NCBI GenBank assembly: GCA_902618245.1
Contig: CACMZR010000001.1
Location: forward strand, 277,507-328,354
Origin: an uncultured Bacteroidota bacterium
Lineage (GTDB): Bacteria > Bacteroidota > Bacteroidia > Flavobacteriales > Flavobacteriaceae
Reading direction: 5' to 3'
DNA: 50,848 nucleotides
In this document: one piece after another, positions 32,593-41,431 of the stretch
Layout: the number at the start of each line of letters is the position of its first letter
How positions within the stretch are numbered: the first letter of the stretch is position 1
Notes under the pieces: generated by a model
Databases searched by the model: none
The model's input: the letters and a program-made list of their open reading frames with translations, nothing else
Told to the model about the DNA's origin: nothing
Position numbers and translations under genes: made by a program

Positions 32593-32940
32593 CTGAAAAC
32601 AAAGAATCCTAATATCAGTCAGCTCTATTCTTTAATTTCAATTTTTTTAGTAGTAATGTTTTTGACCCCTATGGGTTTAAAACTGGAACACACATTTAGC
32701 TACCACTCAGATAATATTGAATGTTTTCATGATCAGACTCATATTCATAATTATAATAAGCATAATGATTTTCTAGATGTTTACTATCAGCCTTTGGTTG
32801 AATATCATTTTAATGGTGAAATAATTTCAAATAATGCTCAAACATTATTTGAATACATATTTAATAATACTTCTATTTACAATAGATTAAGTATCAATAA
32901 TCTTAAAGATAGAGGTCCACCGAATTTTTTGTTTCGGTAA
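32593..32940 (+). CDS. Small His-rich exported protein, candidate metal-binding
   Basis: The ATG at 32656 gives 94 residues, but the same frame stays open upstream to a CTG at 32593, two bases after the DUF1080 stop. The added codons complete a good signal sequence (LKTKNPNISQLYSLISIFLVV, then the Met of the ATG). The longer form (115 residues) is listed; the start is inferred. The mature part begins LEHTFSYHSDNIECFHDQTHIHNYNKH, with seven His and one Cys in about 26 residues, and ends RGPPNFLFR. I recall short Bacteroidetes proteins with an N-terminal His-rich part and a C-terminal R-G/A-P-P motif next to metal-uptake receptors. No catalytic motif. It is followed 36 bases later by the tiny Asp/His-rich lipoprotein. 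Confidence 0.6.
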   Translation: MKTKNPNISQLYSLISIFLVVMFLTPMGLKLEHTFSYHSDNIECFHDQTHIHNYNKHNDFLDVYYQPLVEYHFNGEIISNNAQTLFEYIFNNTSIYNRLSINNLKDRGPPNFLFR

Positions 32941-32976
32941 TTATTAAATATTAACTAACAATTAAAACTTTTTAAA

Positions 32977-33111
32977 ATGAAAAAATACTTATTATTATTA
33001 TTCGCTTTTGCATCTTTCGCTGTTATTTCATGTGAAGACGATGATCATGACGACGATGACGGACACGATCATTCTGCCTTAGTAGAAGGTTCTTCAGCTA
33101 ACATTGCTTAA
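32977..33111 (+). CDS. 44-residue Asp/His-rich lipoprotein
   Basis: A small ORF below the usual length cutoff. It has a textbook lipoprotein signal (MKKYLLLLFAFASFAVISC, Cys19), then a mature peptide of only 26 residues starting CEDDDHDDDDGHDHSALVEG, with eight Asp and three His. Such a peptide would sit on the outer-membrane inner face as a tethered metal ligand. The ATG follows an A-rich leader (TTTTTAAA), and a strong terminator begins 33 bases after the stop, which supports a real transcription unit. Its neighbours are the His-rich protein and the Fur/Zur-type regulator. The metal-binding role is inference from composition. Confidence 0.65.
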   Translation: MKKYLLLLFAFASFAVISCEDDDHDDDDGHDHSALVEGSSANIA

Positions 33112-33143
33112 GTAAAAACAGCTATTTAACGATAATAGTGATT

Positions 33144-33177
33144 TTGGCCTTGCACATTTGTGTAAGGCCAATTTTTT
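33144..33177 (+). terminator. Strong rho-independent terminator
   Basis: TTGGCCTTGCAC and GTGTAAGGCCAA form a 12-bp stem (one G-U pair) around the loop ATTT, followed by six T residues. It ends the transcript carrying the small His-rich and Asp/His-rich genes and lies between them and the convergent Fur-family gene. Confidence 0.88.
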
Positions 33178-33216
33178 ATATAAAATCTAAATGACGTTAG
33201 TTATGAAAAATTTTAA

Positions 33217-33606
33217 TTAATTACATAATTCGCATCTTCCTTGAATCAATAATTGCGATACATTAACCTTTTTATCAGTTACTTTTGGTAATTTCATCTC
33301 TACGTTCAGGCGATCTATTTTACCACAATTAAGACATTGAAAATGTGGGCGAAATTTATTTAAGATTGATTCAGAATTGCTATTACAACACCCATCACAT
33401 TTTGCATACCACTTTAGTCCATTTTTCCCAAAAAATGAATGTAATATAGAGTCGTCTTCTAACTTGTTGAGTATACGATAAATAGTTGTTTTGTTCATTT
33501 TATCTCCTAAACGACTTATAAGATCTACAACTGTGATAGCGCTTATTTCATTATTGAATTCCTTTAACAAGATATTAAGTGATGAAGTTTTTCTATGTAT
33601 GCCCAC
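33217..33606 (-). CDS. Fur-family transcriptional regulator (Zur-like)
   Basis: 129 residues with the Fur architecture: an N-terminal winged helix (SAITVVDLISRLGDKMNKTTIYRILNKLEDDSILHSF, where KTTIYRIL is the recognition helix) and a C-terminal dimerisation domain with two Cys pairs, FQCLNCGK and GRCELCN, which normally hold a structural zinc. HxH-type residues (RPHFQC) supply sensing ligands. The start is a GTG at 33606 giving MGIHRKTSS; the nearby ATG is out of frame. It is divergent from a lipoprotein and TonB-receptor operon whose promoter carries a perfect palindrome, the expected target. The metal is not proved; zinc is inferred from the receptor type. Confidence 0.88.
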   Translation of the reverse strand: MGIHRKTSSLNILLKEFNNEISAITVVDLISRLGDKMNKTTIYRILNKLEDDSILHSFFGKNGLKWYAKCDGCCNSNSESILNKFRPHFQCLNCGKIDRLNVEMKLPKVTDKKVNVSQLLIQGRCELCN

Positions 33607-33652
33607 ATGACAAATTTATTTATTTTTTTTTCCCTCAAAAAAAAAAAGTACT

Positions 33653-33673
33653 TATTTTTGCAACTGAGTTGCA
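33653..33673 (+). promoter_or_regulatory. Candidate Zur/Fur operator overlapping a -7 box
   Basis: TATTTTTG (33653-33660) fits the TAnnTTTG -7 consensus. The palindrome TGCAACTGAGTTGCA (33659-33673; 7 bp, central G, 7 bp, perfect) overlaps its last bases and the expected transcription start. A dimeric repressor bound there would block the lipoprotein-TonB receptor operon starting at 33702. The site is 53 bases from the start of the divergent regulator gene, so it could also control that gene. Confidence 0.72.
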
Positions 33674-33701
33674 TTAATTTAATCCATTTAAAAAATATAA
33701 T

Positions 33702-34247
33702 ATGAAATTTTTTACAAAATTTAGTAAAGCAAAAATTCTTTTTTTAGCCTTTATTTTTACTATATCCTGTAGTAAAGATGATCCAGACGCTGTCAATGAA
33801 CAAGAGTTTATTTCAAATGTTATACTCACTATTGAATCTGCAGACGGAACATCACAAACAGTTGACTGGGATTTGAGTGAAATGAATTCTCAGACAATCA
33901 ATTTAAAGGTAAATACTGATCATAATGTTGGAATAAGATTTATAAATAGTAGTGATCCAAATGATATTGAAGATGTAACACTCGAGGTAATTGCGGAAGC
34001 TGACGAACATCAAGTATTTTATGAGTTTGCAGATGTTTCTGTAAATGTAACTTCAGCTTCTAATGATACTAAAGACGGAGGTAGAGGTGTACTTCTTAAT
34101 AGTGTTTGGAATGCGAGTTCCATGGGTACTGGTTTGGTGAGAGTATATTTAATACACCAACCTACAAATTTTAATGCTACAACAAGAGATGGCCTTGGAG
34201 GATTTAATGACGTGGCTATTGACATTCCAGTATCTATAGTTGAGTAA
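33702..34247 (+). CDS. Lipoprotein paired with a TonB receptor (putative metal-uptake accessory)
   Basis: 181 residues with a lipoprotein signal ending ILFLAFIFTISCSK. The mature part is beta-rich: FISNVILTIESADGTSQTVDWD, INLKVNTDHNVGIRFINSSDPNDIEDVTLEVIAEADEHQVFYEFADVSVNV, and VRVYLIHQPTNFNA near the end. The segment DEHQVFY (Asp101-Glu102-His103) and the HQP stretch are conserved, as I remember, in short lipoproteins labelled 'type 1 periplasmic binding fold superfamily' that accompany Fur-controlled TonB receptors in Bacteroidetes. It may hand metal to, or capture it for, the receptor. The stop codon is immediately followed by the TTG start of the receptor gene, so the two are translationally coupled. 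Confidence 0.75.
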   Translation: MKFFTKFSKAKILFLAFIFTISCSKDDPDAVNEQEFISNVILTIESADGTSQTVDWDLSEMNSQTINLKVNTDHNVGIRFINSSDPNDIEDVTLEVIAEADEHQVFYEFADVSVNVTSASNDTKDGGRGVLLNSVWNASSMGTGLVRVYLIHQPTNFNATTRDGLGGFNDVAIDIPVSIVE

Positions 34248-36668
34248 TTGAAACACAAATCAATTCATTTCTATATTGTTCTAAATTGTTTATTCATTTG
34301 GAATTTTACTTATGGCCAAGAATGTAATTTATTTTTAAAAGGTATAGTCACTGACTTTCACGATGACTCTTTTTTAATTGGTGCCCTTGTAAAAATTGAG
34401 GGCACCAATTTTTTTTCACAAACGAATCTAAATGGAGAATTTGAAATAGAGGGAATATGTCCTGGTAGATATGTTTTAAATATTAGCCATCCAAATTGTA
34501 AATCAAAAACCAAAAACATTAATCTTAAGGACAACAAAATATTTGATTTAAAATTAGAACACCATATAAATGAATTAGAAGAAATTATAGTATCTGACTC
34601 TAGGCTTTCTCGAACTAGAAAATCAGTTCAGGAAGTTTTAGTTGATATAAGTGAAATTAATTCATATGGAAGTAATACTTTGGTTGACGCATTAAATTAT
34701 ATCCCCGGAGCATCAATTTTAAAAACTGGAAATTCAATTGGCAAGCCAGTTATTCACGGTATGTATGGAAGTAGAGTTGGTATCGTGACCGATGGATTTA
34801 GGCAGTACGATCAACAGTGGGGCCCTGACCATGCACCAAATGTTGATTTCGATTCTTTTGAAACAATTCAACTTATTAAAGGTGCTGCCGCTTTAAAATA
34901 TGGAGGAGATACATCTGCAGGTTCAATTATCTTAAGTTCCAAGAGAAAAGTTTTAAGAGATACACTTTTCGGTACCTCATTTATAAATTTAGAATCTAAT
35001 GGTTGGGGAGGTAAATTTGGATCTAGACTTGAAAAAAATTATTCAAACGGATTTTATATAAATGGAAATTTTACAGGTAAAAGATATGGAGACTTAAATT
35101 CTCCAAATTATATCCTTTCAAATACTGGATTTAAAGAAGTAGATTTTTCAATAAAACTTGGAAAGGATTTAGTTTCAAAAGGATGGAATTTAAAATATTC
35201 AAATTATAATTTAGAGCCAGGAATTCTAAAGGCATCACATATTGGTAACGTTCAAGATTTATTTTTTGCACTTAATTCCAGCGAACCATCAATAATTGAC
35301 GATTTCACTTATAATGTAGGGGCCCCAAATCAGAGAGCCAGTCATCAAAGGTTAACATTTAAATATTTCAGATCATTCAAAAATGATGTTAAACTTGATT
35401 TTGGATATAGCTATCAAAACAACAAACGAAAAGAGTTTGATATAAGAAGAGGTGGTAGAACAAATGTACCGGTAGTTGATTTACTTCTTAAAACTCATAA
35501 TTTAATGTTAGGTTTTTCAAATATAAAAATGGAAAATTGGGACTTTGAATTTGGATACAATGGATTAATTCAAGACAACTTTTCTACTCCAGATACTGGC
35601 GTAAAAAGACTAATTCCTGATTACATTAAGTTTGAGAATGGAATCTATATTCTAGGAAGCTATCAGGAATCCAACTCCTTTTTGTGGGAGTGGGGATTAA
35701 GACTAGATCATGTGTTTTATGATGCTAAAAAATATTATTATAAATCAGTTTGGGAAGAAAGAAATTACGATGTCTTGTTTAATCAATTTGAAACAGGAAC
35801 CGATTTTGCAAATCAAATTCTAGTAAACCCAAAATTCAATTATCTAAATGTTTCCGCGCAAACTGGTATTTCAAAAAAAATATCGGATAATTCTGAATTT
35901 AATATTTCTTACATTTTGTCCCAAAGAGCGCCAAATCCATCAGAATTGTTTAGTGACGGATTGCATCATGCCATGGCGGCTATTGAATACGGGAACTTAA
36001 GTATAAATCCCGAGACAAGTCACAAATTTCTTTTGAGTTTATCCAAAACTAAACCAAATTATAATTGGTCACTCGAGCCTTTTATTTCAAAAACTTTTAA
36101 CTACATTTTTATAGAACCAACAGGATTAAAACAAACCATCAGAGGCGCTTTTCCAGTATGGACATACAAGAGTACAGACGCTTTTTTGACAGGTATTGAT
36201 CTTAATTATTCTCAATCAATAATAGAAAATCTTAGTTTTGATATTGGAGCTTCATACGTATATGCCCAGGACATATTAAATTCTGAGCCTCTAATTTTAA
36301 TTCCACCTCTAAATTCTTTTCAAAAATTAAAATTTTCACCCAAAAAGAGTAAATGGACTTTTGAGATATCCAATCACATAAGCGCAAAACAAAATAGATT
36401 TCCAGACTCTAATTTCATTTTTGATTATATAGAGGACGGAACAATTGTTTCAAAAACAGTTGATATTAGCGAGTCTCCTTCTGGATTTCATCGACTCGAT
36501 GCTATTTTCTCGTTACAAATAAGGAATCAAAAAAATCTTACAACTAATTTAAGATTGATAGCCCAAAATATTTTAAATAGCGAATATCGAGACTATCTTA
36601 ACAGAATGCGTTACTATTCATCTGAGTTGGGAAGAAATCTCCAAATTCAACTTAATTTTAATTATTAA
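34248..36668 (+). CDS. TonB-dependent outer-membrane receptor, probable metal (zinc) uptake
   Basis: 806 residues. A signal peptide (YIVLNCLFIWNFTYGQ) is followed by a CarboxypepD-like domain (FLKGIVTDFHDDSFLIGALVKI, about 25-110), a TonB plug (VQEVLVDISEINSYG... IQLIKGAAALKYGGDTSAGSIIL, about 125-230) and a beta-barrel to the C-terminus (IQLNFNY). The plug contains HGMYGSRVGIVTDGFRQYDQQWGPDHAP; the His/Asp-bearing QWGPDHAP (190-197) resembles plugs of ZnuD-type metal receptors. The start is a TTG directly after the stop of the upstream lipoprotein; there is no in-frame ATG before the plug. With the Fur-type regulator and the palindromic operator this forms a metal-responsive uptake operon. 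Zinc is inferred; copper or a metallophore cannot be excluded. Confidence 0.85.
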   Translation: MKHKSIHFYIVLNCLFIWNFTYGQECNLFLKGIVTDFHDDSFLIGALVKIEGTNFFSQTNLNGEFEIEGICPGRYVLNISHPNCKSKTKNINLKDNKIFDLKLEHHINELEEIIVSDSRLSRTRKSVQEVLVDISEINSYGSNTLVDALNYIPGASILKTGNSIGKPVIHGMYGSRVGIVTDGFRQYDQQWGPDHAPNVDFDSFETIQLIKGAAALKYGGDTSAGSIILSSKRKVLRDTLFGTSFINLESNGWGGKFGSRLEKNYSNGFYINGNFTGKRYGDLNSPNYILSNTGFKEVDFSIKLGKDLVSKGWNLKYSNYNLEPGILKASHIGNVQDLFFALNSSEPSIIDDFTYNVGAPNQRASHQRLTFKYFRSFKNDVKLDFGYSYQNNKRKEFDIRRGGRTNVPVVDLLLKTHNLMLGFSNIKMENWDFEFGYNGLIQDNFSTPDTGVKRLIPDYIKFENGIYILGSYQESNSFLWEWGLRLDHVFYDAKKYYYKSVWEERNYDVLFNQFETGTDFANQILVNPKFNYLNVSAQTGISKKISDNSEFNISYILSQRAPNPSELFSDGLHHAMAAIEYGNLSINPETSHKFLLSLSKTKPNYNWSLEPFISKTFNYIFIEPTGLKQTIRGAFPVWTYKSTDAFLTGIDLNYSQSIIENLSFDIGASYVYAQDILNSEPLILIPPLNSFQKLKFSPKKSKWTFEISNHISAKQNRFPDSNFIFDYIEDGTIVSKTVDISESPSGFHRLDAIFSLQIRNQKNLTTNLRLIAQNILNSEYRDYLNRMRYYSSELGRNLQIQLNFNY

Positions 36669-36734: not shown

Positions 36735-37295
36735 ATGGTTAACAATAAAGTACTACAATTATTATTGTTCTCTATAACAAGTACATTATTTGTTGTTGCA
36801 CAAGATGAAACTTTAATAGAGGGAAATTATAATGATCCATCATTAGTTACTCAAACTGCATTTGTTGAAGAGCTTTTATATGTTGCAGGTTATGTACCTG
36901 AAAAAATCGAGGTTTATCAAAGCCTTCCAAATTATTCGCATGTCTTTCGAGTAAAATTAGATTCTGTTACTGGCGGATTTGTATTTGTTCGTTGGGATAA
37001 ACAAAAAAAGCAGCATTATGTTGCAAATAAAATGATTGATCCTGGAGTTTATTATAACCTAAAGTCAGCTCAAGAAATTATGCGCAAACAAACCCAAAAT
37101 GCTAGTTTTAGTATTGAGGATGGAGCTCTACAAGCTAGTGATCAGCAGAAAATAGGTGATGAGGATTTAGATGAACTTCGTCAACAGTACGACAAAAGAG
37201 AAAAAGAAAAACAAGATGCAATTAATGCCGTTGAACAAAAAAATAGGCAAAAAGAGCAAAGAAAAATTGAGAGAAAATCAGCAAAAAAAAATTGA
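36735..37295 (+). CDS. Uncharacterised exported protein with charged C-terminal helix
   Basis: 186 residues, not recognised. A hydrophobic N-terminus (LQLLLFSITSTLFVVAQ) is a signal peptide. The middle (about 25-115) looks globular: TAFVEELLYVAGYVPEKIEVYQSLPNYSHVFRVKL and GGFVFVRWDKQKKQHYVANKMIDPGVYYNL. From about residue 135 to the end it is a highly charged Lys/Glu/Gln/Arg segment (QQYDKREKEKQDAINAVEQ), predicted to form a long helix or coiled coil that could bind a partner or the cell wall. It lies 66 bases after the TonB receptor on the same strand and converges on the Rieske gene with 4 bases between them. No function is proposed. Confidence 0.7.
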   Translation: MVNNKVLQLLLFSITSTLFVVAQDETLIEGNYNDPSLVTQTAFVEELLYVAGYVPEKIEVYQSLPNYSHVFRVKLDSVTGGFVFVRWDKQKKQHYVANKMIDPGVYYNLKSAQEIMRKQTQNASFSIEDGALQASDQQKIGDEDLDELRQQYDKREKEKQDAINAVEQKNRQKEQRKIERKSAKKN

Positions 37296-37299
37296 CTGA

Positions 37300-37755
37300 T
37301 TATCCTAAATCTACAGTAAGAATATTACCGTCTAAACTTGTATCAAAACATTTTAACGAACCACTGCACGATGCACTAAATGAGTTTCCATGGCGAGCGC
37401 ATGTAAAATTACTCCCATCAAATGACCAACGATTCCTGGTACCTTGATGTGGACAAGCATTATCAAACGCTCTAATCTCACTGTCACTGATTCTTACTAA
37501 TAAAATATTTTCAGAAGTGAAGTTTAACCAACCACCAACTTCTTTTAAAGAGGAAAATCTGTTATCATCTAAATCAATTTCAAGTTCGCTACTTGAGCTA
37601 GCTTGAGACGACGAATTATCTGTTGGTGCCGAATTAGTTGGAGCTGTTACAGTAGAATCTTCTTCAGTAGAACAGGCCTCAATTATTGGAATTCCTAGTG
37701 TTGCTAAAACTATTGGTTTACATGCAGTTTTTAGAAAATATCTTCTATTTTTCAT
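37300..37755 (-). CDS. Rieske [2Fe-2S] lipoprotein, probably Tat-exported
   Basis: 151 residues. The N-terminus contains a twin-arginine motif (NRRYFLK) and a lipobox (IIEAC), so it is a probable Tat lipoprotein, which suits a protein exported with its cluster in place. A Ser/Thr/Asn-rich linker follows, then a Rieske domain with both ligand motifs: CPHQG and CARHG (Cys-X-His ... Cys-X2-His), 15-20 residues apart. It probably transfers single electrons in the periplasm. It is a stand-alone ferredoxin-type Rieske protein; no cytochrome b or oxygenase subunit is adjacent. It is divergent from the second TonB receptor. Confidence 0.9.
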   Translation of the reverse strand: MKNRRYFLKTACKPIVLATLGIPIIEACSTEEDSTVTAPTNSAPTDNSSSQASSSSELEIDLDDNRFSSLKEVGGWLNFTSENILLVRISDSEIRAFDNACPHQGTRNRWSFDGSNFTCARHGNSFSASCSGSLKCFDTSLDGNILTVDLG

Positions 37756-37833: not shown

Positions 37834-40194
37834 ATGAGAAAGGTATTAACATTAATACTTTTTATATGCATTAAAGCTGTTTGTGCTCAAAACCTAGGAA
37901 CATTAAATGGTCGCATTGTTGATGAAAAAACCCAACAACCATTACAGGGAGCAACAATAATTCTAGAGGGCACAAATATTGGAGCAATAACAGATTCCGA
38001 TGGCTATTTCATTTTAAACCAAATCCCCTTTAAATCATACAATGTAGAAGCTAGCTTTTTAGGATATCAAACCACTAAACAATTTAATGTAATTGTAAAA
38101 TCAGCTGGAAATATTCCTTTAATATTTGAGTTAAATGAATTAACCGAAGATCTTGAGGAAGTTATAGTTTCAAGTAATCCTTTTAAAACAAGCAGTGAAA
38201 CTCCCTTATCAACTCAAACATTTTCAGTTGTTGAAATTGAAACTTACCCTGGAGGTAATAATGACATTACTAAAGTGGTACAAAGCATGCCAGGTATTTC
38301 TCCCTCAATAGGAGGTTTTAGGAATGACATAATTATAAGAGGGGGAGCACCTAATGAAACTGTTTATTATTTAGATGGTATCGAAATACCAAACATTAAT
38401 CATTTTAGTACGCAGGGAAGTGCAGGTGGACCTGTCGGAATGATTAATGTATCATTTATTAGGGAAGTAACTCTTTCAAGCTCTGCCTTTGGTGCGGAAT
38501 TTGACAATCCACTTTCAGGTGTTTTGTCATTTCAACAAAGAGAGGGTGACCCAAACAGATTTGGCGGTAATTTTAGATTTGGAGCTAGTGAAGCAGGACT
38601 AACTTTGGAAGGTCCCCTCTTCAGAAAAAATAAAACTGAACCCTCAAAAACTACCTTTTTATTTTCAGCTAGAAGAAGTTATTTACAATTTCTTTTTGAA
38701 CTCATCGGATTACCAATACGACCGGATTACTGGGATTACCAATGGAAAGTAAAACACGAGTTAGACCGTTATAATACTCTAACTTTTATAGGTTTGGGCT
38801 CAATAGATAACTTTTCTGTTAAGCAGCCAGATCAGTTTGATGCAGAACAACAAGCAACACTAGAGCAAGTGCCTGTTATTGAACAAAGAACTACTACAGT
38901 TGGATTGTCCTGGAAGAAAAACTTTAAAAATGGGAATGGATTCACATCAACTGCCCTTAGTTCAAACAGGCTAGGAAATGTTTTTTCAAGATACCTTGAC
39001 AATGTAAATAAAACTGGAATTATTTTTCAAAACGATTCTTATGAGTGGGAAACAAAGTTACGTTTTAGCATAACACAATTCGTAAATGATTGGAAATGGT
39101 CTGCAGGATTTAATGTTCAAAATTCAAGTTATAAAAATGTAACAAGTTTTTTAAGAGAAAATATATTTTATGAAACAGATTTAAATTTTTTTAAATATGG
39201 TTTATTTCTAAAAGCAGGGAATAATTTTTTTAATCAAAGACTAAATATTTCTTTAGGTGTAAGAACTGATGCTGACACCTTTTCAACGGGATCAAATTTA
39301 ATCGACAATTTTTCTCCAAGACTTTCATTTTCATATTCCCTTTCCCAGGATCAAAAATGGAAATTTAATGCTTCCATTGGCAGGTATTTTAAAATTCCTA
39401 CCTACACAATGTTGGGTTTTCAGAACAACTTATCAGTTTTTGTTAATAAATCAGCTCAATACACTAAAAGCGAACACTATGTGGCTGGTTTAGAATATAA
39501 TCTAACATCAGTCTCAAGATTAACTGTAGAGGGATTCTTGAAAAATTATTCGCAGTTTCCTGTTTCTTTAATTGATGGTGTATCACTTGCAAATAAAGGG
39601 GGAGGATTTGAAGTTTTAGGCAATGAAGCTATTCTATCTCTAGGAGAAGGTAAAACATCCGGTTTAGAATTTTTATTTCAACAAAAGTTAGCCAAAAACT
39701 TTTATGGTATTTTGGCTTATACCTATTTCTCTAGTGAATTTTCTGGTTTAGATGGAATCTTGAGACCTTCCGTATGGGATAGTCGTCATCTTATTTCATT
39801 TTCGGGAGGTTACAAACTAAGGAAAAATTGGGAGATAAGTGCTCGATGGAGGTATGCTGGAAAAAATCCTTATGTTCCGGTTGATATTAATGCTAGTACC
39901 ATTTCATATCCGGAAATTATTTTAGATTACGATACACTAGGAGAATTTAGACTAGACGCTTTCAATCTTGCAGATATTCGAATAGATAAAAAATGGAATT
40001 TTAAGAATCTTTCATTTAACTTATATTTCGAGGTACAAAATTTTTTAGCTCAACCAAATCCTACACCTCCAGAATACGGACTAAACAGAAATTTGGATGG
40101 CACCATTATAATACCTAAAAATTTAGTTCCTGTATCTAATCAAGAAGGAAATAGTTCACCACTACCTACCTTTGGATTTGTTTTATTCTTTTAA
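37834..40194 (+). CDS. TonB-dependent receptor with CarboxypepD-like N-terminal domain
   Basis: About 786 residues. Signal peptide (VLTLILFICIKAVCAQ), CarboxypepD_reg-like domain (GTLNGRIVDEKTQQPLQGATIILEGTNIG... about 22-110), TonB plug (PLSTQTFSVVEIETYPGGNNDITKVVQSMPGI... RNDIIIRGGAPNETVYYLDGIEIPNINHF... about 120-240) and a long beta-barrel ending FGFVLFF. No SusD partner is next to it, so it is not a typical polysaccharide-utilisation pair; the ligand is unknown. The open frame begins at a TTG at 37819, but the ATG at 37834 precedes the signal peptide and is preferred. It converges on rimM with 7 bases between the stops. Confidence 0.9.
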   Translation: MRKVLTLILFICIKAVCAQNLGTLNGRIVDEKTQQPLQGATIILEGTNIGAITDSDGYFILNQIPFKSYNVEASFLGYQTTKQFNVIVKSAGNIPLIFELNELTEDLEEVIVSSNPFKTSSETPLSTQTFSVVEIETYPGGNNDITKVVQSMPGISPSIGGFRNDIIIRGGAPNETVYYLDGIEIPNINHFSTQGSAGGPVGMINVSFIREVTLSSSAFGAEFDNPLSGVLSFQQREGDPNRFGGNFRFGASEAGLTLEGPLFRKNKTEPSKTTFLFSARRSYLQFLFELIGLPIRPDYWDYQWKVKHELDRYNTLTFIGLGSIDNFSVKQPDQFDAEQQATLEQVPVIEQRTTTVGLSWKKNFKNGNGFTSTALSSNRLGNVFSRYLDNVNKTGIIFQNDSYEWETKLRFSITQFVNDWKWSAGFNVQNSSYKNVTSFLRENIFYETDLNFFKYGLFLKAGNNFFNQRLNISLGVRTDADTFSTGSNLIDNFSPRLSFSYSLSQDQKWKFNASIGRYFKIPTYTMLGFQNNLSVFVNKSAQYTKSEHYVAGLEYNLTSVSRLTVEGFLKNYSQFPVSLIDGVSLANKGGGFEVLGNEAILSLGEGKTSGLEFLFQQKLAKNFYGILAYTYFSSEFSGLDGILRPSVWDSRHLISFSGGYKLRKNWEISARWRYAGKNPYVPVDINASTISYPEIILDYDTLGEFRLDAFNLADIRIDKKWNFKNLSFNLYFEVQNFLAQPNPTPPEYGLNRNLDGTIIIPKNLVPVSNQEGNSSPLPTFGFVLFF

Positions 40195-40738: not shown

Positions 40739-41431
40739 CTAGTCAGTATTTTTGGAGTTATTCTCACCTTTAGCTGTTTCATCGTCTTTATCGGACGCAT
40801 CTTCAGCAGCAGGAGCCTCATCAGTGGTTGGAGTTTCTTCAGCAGCAGAAGCCTCATCAGTGGCAGGAGCCTCATCAGTGGCAGGGACCTCATCAGCAGC
40901 AGGAGCCTCATCAGTGGCAGGGACCTCATCAGCAGCAGGAGCCTCATCAGTTGAAGAAACATCTTGGGTCGCTGCTGCCTCTTTTGCAGCGGCATCTTCA
41001 AGTCTTTTCTCACTTGCTTGTTTTTCTGCAGCCAGTCTTTTTATTTTATCTTCTTCATTAGCTTTTAATAAATTATCTTTTTTGGCTTGAATTTTTGCTT
41101 CTTTCTCTTTGAGCCAATCAGCAAGTTTTTTATCAGCTATTTCCTGGGTAATAGCACCTTTTCTTACTCCTCCATTCAGGTGATGTTTTAACATTGCTCC
41201 CTTGTATGACAAAAGAGTCCTGGCAGTATCTGTAGGCTGAGCCCCTTTTCCCAGCCATTCAACGGCACGATCTATGTCAATTATTACAGTAGCTGGGTTT
41301 GTATTAGGATTGTAGGTACCAATTTTTTCTAGGTAGCGGCCGTCTCTTTTTGCTCGAGAATCGGCAGCAACAAGCCAATAAAATGGTTTCCCTTTTTTCC
41401 CATGTCTCTGAAGTCTTAATTTTAGTGGCAT
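40739..41431 (-). CDS. rpsP: 30S ribosomal protein S16 with long repetitive acidic tail
   Basis: 230 residues. The S16 core is at the N-terminus: PLKLRLQRHGKKGKPFYWLVAADSRAKRDGRYLEKIGTYNP and AVEWLGKGAQPTDTARTLLSYKG (about 1-85). A basic/charged helix follows (KLADWLKEKEAKIQAKKD), then an extended Ala/Glu/Asp/Pro/Thr-rich tail from about residue 135. Within it residues about 160-208 are six-residue repeats of the type T-D-E-A-P-A, encoded by 18-bp DNA repeats. S16 is 80-90 residues in most bacteria and about 150-190 in Bacteroidetes as I recall, so this one is long. The tail is probably disordered and solvent exposed. First gene of the rpsP-rimM unit. Confidence 0.95.
   Translation of the reverse strand: MPLKLRLQRHGKKGKPFYWLVAADSRAKRDGRYLEKIGTYNPNTNPATVIIDIDRAVEWLGKGAQPTDTARTLLSYKGAMLKHHLNGGVRKGAITQEIADKKLADWLKEKEAKIQAKKDNLLKANEEDKIKRLAAEKQASEKRLEDAAAKEAAATQDVSSTDEAPAADEVPATDEAPAADEVPATDEAPATDEASAAEETPTTDEAPAAEDASDKDDETAKGENNSKNTD
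40809..40952. repeat. Eight tandem 18-bp repeats inside rpsP
   Basis: The 144 bases divide into eight 18-bp units with plus-strand consensus GCAGGAGCCTCATCAGTG, alternating with GCAGGGACCTCATCAGCA. Units 5-6 and 7-8 form a 36-bp higher-order repeat with a single mismatch in the last base; unit 2 (40827-40844) is the most degenerate. The reading frame of S16 is kept because each unit is six codons. Such arrays change length by replication slippage. Confidence 0.9.

What the first reader, a model, noticed from the sequence alone, without database searches (positions are those of the whole stretch)
32593..36668. Possible metal (zinc-type) acquisition island with two tiny metal-ligand proteins
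Five genes meet here: a His-rich exported protein, a 44-residue Asp/His-rich lipoprotein, a Fur-family regulator with the two Cys-pair zinc site, a lipoprotein with a DEHQ motif, and a TonB receptor whose plug carries QWGPDHAP. The receptor pair and the regulator are divergent with a palindrome between them. Seen: the genes, motifs and order. Known: Zur/ZnuD-like receptors import metal. Inferred: the tiny peptides store or relay the metal on the outer membrane.
Basis: partly seen in the sequence, partly recalled or inferred. Interest (0 to 1): 0.8.

Follow-up and report, generated by a model that had tools for sequence, protein, structure and literature searches.

The report
Zinc-uptake locus with ribosome-stalling leader gene
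This marine bacterium carries a zinc-uptake gene cluster in which the small His-rich gene, first read as a metal store, looks instead like a leader peptide that stalls its own ribosome, a control that close relatives have partly swapped for a conventional zinc repressor.

Summary
Genes, motifs and palindrome are all there, and the locus is very likely for zinc. The regulator is Zur-like: TGCAACTGAGTTGCA recurs (at most 2 mismatches) upstream of 20 of 20 fetched orthologs, 18 of which have MerC, GTP cyclohydrolase I or CobW neighbours. The receptor's best solved relative is ZnuD.

The His-rich protein is probably not a metal store. It belongs to a leader family (131 of 149 family genomes) that heads TonB-receptor operons and ends in R[G/A/P]PP, a ribosome-arrest motif. 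Its Cys-to-RxPP distance is fixed although the linker is only 8-11% identical, and the RNA a stalled ribosome would cover tends to be the 5' arm of a hairpin. It works like CruR/CutF but fails their Pfam test.

Of 77 receptor loci, 75 have such a leader; the two without one have Zur boxes. In the receptor tree the box arose once, in the window's clade, and the leader was lost later. Leader and Zur box may thus answer the same signal, zinc.

The 44-aa Asp/His lipoprotein is a real, selected gene of a few lineages; 10 of 11 copies sit directly behind a leader.

Arrest and metal response are inferred, not measured.

The parts
32593..32940 (+).
   Evidence: dN/dS 0.21
32911..32922 (+). RGPP codons (AGA GGT CCA CCG), the predicted ribosome-arrest site
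   Evidence: motif class from PMC12992588 and PMC9426467
32919..32938 (+). Small RNA hairpin (stem 32919-32924 / 32933-32938) whose 5' arm a ribosome stalled on RGPP would cover
   Evidence: window z -1.75; it does not cover the next start codon, and the whole segment is no more structured than shuffles (z +0.69)
32977..33111 (+). 44-aa Asp/His-rich lipoprotein, directly behind the leader
   Evidence: dN/dS 0.07
33217..33606 (-). Zur-like Fur-family regulator, GTG start (homologs start MGI.RKT)
33659..33673 (.). Zur box TGCAACTGAGTTGCA in the divergent promoter
33702..34247 (+). Partner lipoprotein, predicted beta-sandwich (mean pLDDT 87.5); invariant H103 (DEHQ) and H152, E35, E99, D170
34248..36668 (+). 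ZnuD-like TonB-dependent receptor (TTG start abutting the lipoprotein stop)
34815..34838 (+). Plug motif QWGPDHAP; its DH pair aligns with the ZnuD plug motif PDHA
35964..35969 (+). His573-His574 (GLHH); the first aligns with a His that I take to be ZnuD His499 (chain numbering shifted by 14)

Best explanation
A zinc-uptake locus caught in a change of control. The receptor and its lipoprotein bring zinc (or a zinc chelate) across the outer membrane. In most Flavobacteriaceae examined the operon is headed by a leader gene. Its exported nascent chain carries a His/Cys cluster and, a fixed number of residues later, an R[G/A/P]PP ribosome-arrest motif. Proposed mechanism: without metal, the ribosome stalls on RxPP and covers the 5' arm of a hairpin that otherwise shuts off the next gene, so the receptor is made; metal bound to the emerging chain relieves the stall. 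In the window's clade a 44-aa Asp/His lipoprotein gene came to lie behind the leader. A Zur box then arose before the lipoprotein-receptor pair, and in the window and L223 the Zur gene itself stands there. So here the leader would control only the 44-aa lipoprotein, and Zur the receptor pair. Shown by sequence: homology, order, motifs, spacing, hairpin statistics, tree. Inferred: stalling, metal identity, direction of the response, function of the 44-aa protein.
For: Leader: profile A1 hits 131 of 149 family genomes. Of 77 named receptor loci with enough upstream sequence, 75 do (64, L223, ten with K[AP]PP). A Cys stands 61-63 residues before R in 36 of 37 His-type leaders; where a CxxC follows, its second Cys stands 46 before R in 7 (45 residues between, the CruR figure), 44-45 in 7. 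Linker identity 8-11%, RxPP 83%. Hairpin: structure removed by a ribosome on RxPP has mean z -2.12, SE 0.29, n 37, 26 below -1, RxPP codons held fixed. Zinc: Zur box within 200 nt of 20 of 20 fetched Zur orthologs; MerC at 16, GTP cyclohydrolase I at 9, CobW at 7 of 20; a leader at 2 of these 20 Zur loci (L145, L155) and a Zur box 43-88 nt before 3 of 58 leaders (L198, L200, L209). Swap: only L216 and L217 lack the leader and both have Zur boxes; box clade of six 100/100, L216+L217 99/98. Receptor: best solved relative ZnuD (site from PMC4557270).
Against: No arrest, metal binding or expression was measured. The proven relatives in mechanism, CruR and CutF, sense copper, not zinc. OprC, a copper receptor, is the third-best solved relative. 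In the window the leader has one Cys, no CxxC, probably a weak CTG start, and a small hairpin that does not cover the next start codon. Leaders L040, L050, L052, L057, L063 and L070 show no hairpin signal. No Zur box (at most 2 mismatches) lies near 38 of 38 other leaders of the first set; L074 has one 514 nt upstream. Of 15 genomes around the close loci, 5 have a match to the window's Zur, one of them weak (L229); none was found in those of L217, L218 and L219, which have boxes (incomplete assemblies), while L221 has Zur but no box at the receptor. ZnuD Glu340 has no clear counterpart.
Confidence: 0.6

Rival explanations
1. Copper version: the leader is a CruR/CutF-type copper sensor and the receptor takes up copper; the Zur box in the window's clade is a later, separate input.
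For: CruR and CutF sense copper and CruR heads a TonB-receptor operon. OprC is among the best solved relatives. In L040 a second leader and the 44-aa gene lie beside an HMA-like membrane protein and a PepSY-like protein (families named by eye).
Against: Plug [DE]H and a barrel His align with ZnuD; the residues listed as conserved in the copper receptor CrtA are others (CrtA was not aligned here). Some leaders lie in Zur-MerC loci or behind Zur boxes, and Zur boxes stand where the leader is missing in two relatives. PMC12992588 reports that leaders of Cu-related genes are not found in Bacteroidota.
Confidence: 0.2
2. The His-rich protein is an ordinary periplasmic metal carrier whose C-terminal RxPP is a binding motif, and nothing stalls.
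For: Many His and Cys residues, hydrophobic export-like N-terminus, purifying selection.
Against: The middle is unconserved while its length is fixed. The motif lies 2-4 residues before the end in 35 of 43 leaders. RGPP/RAPP arrest is established elsewhere. The downstream RNA is structured where a stalled ribosome would sit.
Confidence: 0.1
3. In the window the leader is a relic: Zur has taken over, and the CTG-started leader persists only as the 5' part of the 44-aa gene's transcript.
For: CTG instead of TTG start, no second Cys (shared with other loci of its wider clade), short hairpin; leader already lost in the lineage of L216 and L217.
Against: dN/dS 0.21 against L223 with RGPP and the ligand cluster kept; window hairpin z -1.75 in the ribosome-cover test.
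Confidence: 0.2

Closest known systems
CruR-bfrG/crtA of Bordetella pertussis (PMC9426467, PMC12914433)
   Same: Exported small leader with metal ligands, C-terminal RxPP, fixed spacing (45 residues between CXXC and motif, also found in 7 of the CxxC-bearing flavobacterial leaders), TonB receptor downstream
   Different: No Pfam DUF2946 match; many leaders use His clusters; zinc context (Zur, MerC) instead of copper; gap to the next gene 27-94 nt in 35 of 38 instead of 162; 44-aa lipoprotein as a target; window leader lacks CXXC
CutF of Rhodobacter capsulatus (PMC9973294)
   Same: Exported nascent metal sensor, proline motif at the end, hairpin before the next gene
   Different: CutF activates a copper oxidase when copper is present; here the target is an uptake receptor
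RAPP/RGPP uORFs upstream of TonB-related genes (PMC12992588)
   Same: Same motif class, small, secretory; reported as universal in Gram-negative bacteria
   Different: The parts seen name no metal for the TonB class in Bacteroidota (the word zinc does not occur in its main text) and describe neither this family's ligands nor an exchange with Zur
ZnuD of Neisseria meningitidis (PMC4557270)
   Same: Plug [DE]H and a barrel His of the zinc site conserved; best solved relative
   Different: Low overall score (55 against an NCBIfam cut-off of 950); Glu340 not evident; partner lipoprotein and carboxypeptidase-like N-terminal domain added
Caulobacter crescentus Zur regulon (PMC4176598)
   Same: Zur controls TonB receptors and an ABC-2 transporter; a DUF2946 protein is listed first in the Zur-activated zinc-efflux operon
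   Different: In the passages seen, DUF2946 proteins are not treated as leaders; Zur box sequence differs

Membership tests
DUF2946 (CruR/CutF) | Match to Pfam PF11162 | tested here: not met
   Window: no family at E <= 1; 2 of 41 leaders match, best E 0.12
DUF2946 (CruR/CutF) | CXXC metal motif | tested here: not met
   Window leader has one Cys; many relatives have CxxC
DUF2946 (CruR/CutF) | C-terminal RAPP-like motif at conserved spacing from the ligands | tested here: met
   RGPP; Cys to R 63 in the window, 61-63 in 36 of 37 His-type leaders
DUF2946 (CruR/CutF) | Copper-dependent control of the downstream gene | not testable with these tools
   needs reporter assays
RAPP/RGPP arrest peptides | Small, export-like N-terminus, RxPP close to the C-terminus, gene upstream of its target | tested here: met
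   export judged by eye, no signal-peptide predictor run
RAPP/RGPP arrest peptides | Ribosome stalls at the motif | not testable with these tools
   needs toeprinting
Zur | FUR domain over Pfam cut-off | tested here: met
   26.3 bits, cut-off 23.1
Zur | Orthologs beside zinc-deficiency genes, with a shared palindromic box | tested here: met
   18 of 20 loci have MerC, GTP cyclohydrolase I or CobW; box in 20 of 20; that these are zinc-deficiency genes is general knowledge
Zur | Zinc-dependent binding to the box | not testable with these tools
   needs gel shift
ZnuD | NCBIfam NF038289 score over 950 | tested here: not met
   55 bits
ZnuD | Zinc ligands: plug Asp and His100, Glu340, His499 | tested here: inconclusive
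   Plug [DE]H and His499 positions kept, Glu340 not (the passage seen prints the Asp as D90, from memory it is Asp99)

The most novel reading that the evidence does not exclude
A nascent-chain zinc sensor: flavobacterial RxPP leaders stall the ribosome according to zinc and so control zinc uptake, doing after transcription what Zur does at the promoter. The two are exchangeable in evolution: in one marine clade a Zur box was gained and the leader then lost.
Probability: 0.5. Interest if true: 0.8.

Novelty: new variant of a known kind. Interest (0 to 1): 0.66.

Why it matters
The nascent-chain metal sensors seen in print here respond to copper. A zinc version, in a leader family found in 131 of 149 Flavobacteriaceae genomes searched, would mean that a major group of bacteria controls zinc uptake largely after transcription. 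The window's clade offers a natural experiment in which leader and Zur box replace each other, which makes the sensed metal directly testable. It also suggests a function for a widespread family without a Pfam or NCBIfam name, and two peptide-sized genes turn out to be real.

Tried and rejected
Pfam and NCBIfam named no family over its cut-off for the leader, the 44-aa protein or the partner lipoprotein. The fold search for the lipoprotein model gave no match at E <= 0.001, so its fold is left unnamed. Of 31 genomes with a hit for the 44-aa protein at E <= 0.01, I accepted four (G000, G065, G081, G095) and dropped the rest as weak, partial matches inside mostly longer frames; L217-L223 came later. 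I first took copper as the metal because of CruR; the Zur evidence changed this. I tested whether Zur boxes precede leaders generally: in the first set they do not (0 of 38), in the second 3 of 58 do. I tested whether the Zur gene tracks the box: inconclusive in incomplete genomes. The first hairpin test shuffled whole segments, which the GC-rich RxPP codons could bias; I repeated it with those codons fixed. The count of RxPP ends leans on the profile that found the loci; start from the receptor instead. Literature searches touching a zinc-sensing arrest peptide or RxPP leader (listings only) showed none; bioRxiv and most subscription papers are not held. Papers: PMC12914433 (outline with abstract, sections 4 and 7), PMC12992588 (section 13 and passages), PMC9426467, PMC9973294, PMC4557270, PMC4176598, PMC9976891 and PMC11960050 (passages only; the last two gave nothing used).
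Full report
What is there. The window shows, in order, the His-rich protein (32593-32940), the 44-aa Asp/His lipoprotein (32977-33111), the Fur-family gene on the other strand (33217-33606), a perfect palindrome (33659-33673), the DEHQ lipoprotein (33702-34247) and the TonB receptor (34248-36668). The genome is a 1.83-Mb, 85.8%-complete assembly; the closest named relatives found are Flavobacteriaceae or Bacteroidetes genomes from uncultured bacteria. Both small genes are under purifying selection against the near-identical locus L223: dN/dS 0.21 and 0.07.

The regulator is Zur-like. It scores over the Pfam FUR cut-off. In 149 genomes of the same family, 24 hits at 41% identity or more lie in 22 genomes, the window's own included. 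I fetched 20 of the 23 foreign ones. All 20 have TGCAACTnAGTTGCA with at most 2 mismatches within 200 nt upstream, 11 of them perfect. 16 of 20 loci carry MerC, 9 GTP cyclohydrolase I and 7 a CobW GTPase; 2 have none of these. From general knowledge these are typical zinc-deficiency neighbours. The window's palindrome is a perfect copy of this box.

The receptor and lipoprotein are a conserved pair. The lipoprotein alone hit 66 of 149 family genomes. Of 40 loci then fetched, 39 hold the receptor too; in L042 the contig ends first. The best solved relative is ZnuD (79.9 bits), then a TonB-linked receptor (78.2) and OprC (62.5). The plug [DE]H and the barrel GLHH align with the ZnuD zinc site, but Glu340 has no clear counterpart. 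The residues listed as conserved in the copper receptor CrtA are others (not aligned here). The lipoprotein model is a beta-sandwich with invariant His103 and His152, without a significant fold match.

The His-rich protein is a leader. A profile of 41 leaders matches 131 of 149 family genomes and 46 of 296 genomes drawn from the phylum, 18 of these outside the family. Among 43 leaders the end motif is RGPP 22, RAPP 14, RPPP 5, KAPP 1, RDPP 1, and in 35 of 43 it lies 2-4 residues before the end. All 59 leader loci examined end in RxPP (the profile contains the motif, so this count leans that way). In 54 of 59 a receptor frame begins within 400 nt downstream; the exceptions are the window and four loci where an ABC-ATPase-like gene (by eye) comes first. 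In a set chosen by receptor, 76 of 194 ORFs in the upstream slot end in [RK]xPP, against 5 of 896 elsewhere in the same loci.

Anatomy of the leader. Anchored on RxPP without gaps, the linker is 8-11% identical and RxPP 83%. Yet a Cys stands 61-63 residues before R in 36 of 37 His-type leaders (exception: the leader before the lipoprotein in L042). Where a CxxC follows, its second Cys stands 46 residues before R in 7 leaders, that is 45 between, the figure given for CruR, and 44-45 in 7; the six leaders with CxxC alone have 50-52. The gap to the next gene has a median of 43.5 nt. The RNA that a ribosome halted on RxPP would cover tends to form the 5' arm of a hairpin: mean z -2.12, SE 0.29, n 37 (36 loci with gaps under 150 nt plus the window; two longer ones dropped), 26 below -1 and 1 above +1. 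In some loci the hairpin reaches the next start codon (L065, L068, L072). The window's own hairpin is small (z -1.75) and leaves the start of the 44-aa gene open.

The close relatives tell the history. L225-L231: leader-lipoprotein-receptor. L220-L222: leader-44-aa gene-lipoprotein-receptor. L218 and L219: the same plus a Zur box before the lipoprotein. Window and L223: the same plus the Zur gene. L217: no leader, Zur boxes before the 44-aa gene and before the lipoprotein. L216: no leader, no 44-aa gene, one Zur box. Neighbouring genes are shared in nearly all of them, so this looks like one inherited locus. In the receptor tree the six box-bearing rows form one group (100/100) and L216+L217 pair (99/98); with leaders present in the other two pairs of the group and in the outgroups, the simplest order is box first, leader lost later. 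Among 1.09 Mb of named loci the six matches to the box with at most one mismatch all lie in this clade; the reversed control pattern gave none.

Other lineages support zinc. Leaders lie at 2 of the 20 Zur loci (L145, L155), and 3 of 58 leader loci (L198, L200, L209) have a Zur box 43-88 nt before the leader. Against this, 0 of 38 leaders of the first set have a box close by, so most leaders act without Zur at that promoter.

The 44-aa gene. Four genomes of the 149 carry it convincingly, the window's included, plus L217-L223. In the three foreign genomes it lies in the same locus behind a second leader of its own. In L042 the order is leader-44-aa gene-leader-lipoprotein, one leader per unit. 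Of the 11 copies, 10 sit directly behind a leader; L217 has a Zur box there instead. It is thus a co-regulated accessory, plausibly a metal buffer on a membrane; that function is inference.

Relation to the known. CruR (PMC9426467) and CutF (PMC9973294) are copper sensors of the DUF2946 family. PMC12992588 reports RAPP/RGPP leaders before TonB-related genes throughout Gram-negative bacteria and shows CruR arrest in vitro. So the kind is known. These leaders miss the Pfam DUF2946 test (2 of 41, best E 0.12); I therefore say they work like CruR, not that they are members. New here, as far as the searches show, are the ligand type, the zinc context, the exchange with Zur and the 44-aa target.

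Limits. Nothing was measured. The window's leader probably starts at CTG and may be fading. Of 15 genomes around the close loci 5 matched the window's Zur, one weakly, and those of L217-L219, which carry boxes, did not. The direction of the response and the sensed metal are inferences.

Noticed in passing
window 40739-41431 (-): A protein that looks like ribosomal protein S16 with a long, tandemly repeated Ala/Asp/Glu/Pro tail (ATDEAPAADEVP-like); named by eye.
   Followed up: no
window 37834-40194 (+): A second TonB receptor of another subfamily, shared with the close relatives at 66-98% identity; no RxPP leader was sought for it.
   Followed up: no
L040:8152-10316: Beside a second leader and the 44-aa gene lie a PepSY-like and an HMA-like membrane protein (by eye), which hints at copper in that genome.
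   Followed up: partly
L166, L177, L179-L181, L184-L186 and others: Leaders of the same family also precede a second, more distant TonB receptor subfamily (profile E around 1e-50).
   Followed up: partly
L198, L200, L201, L203: The leader is followed by an ABC-ATPase-like gene, in L203 then a receptor, reminiscent of the Caulobacter znuGHI/znuK set in PMC4176598.
   Followed up: partly
window 36735-37295 (+) and 37300-37755 (-): An unnamed exported-looking protein and a Rieske-domain gene stay beside the receptor in nearly all close relatives.
   Followed up: no
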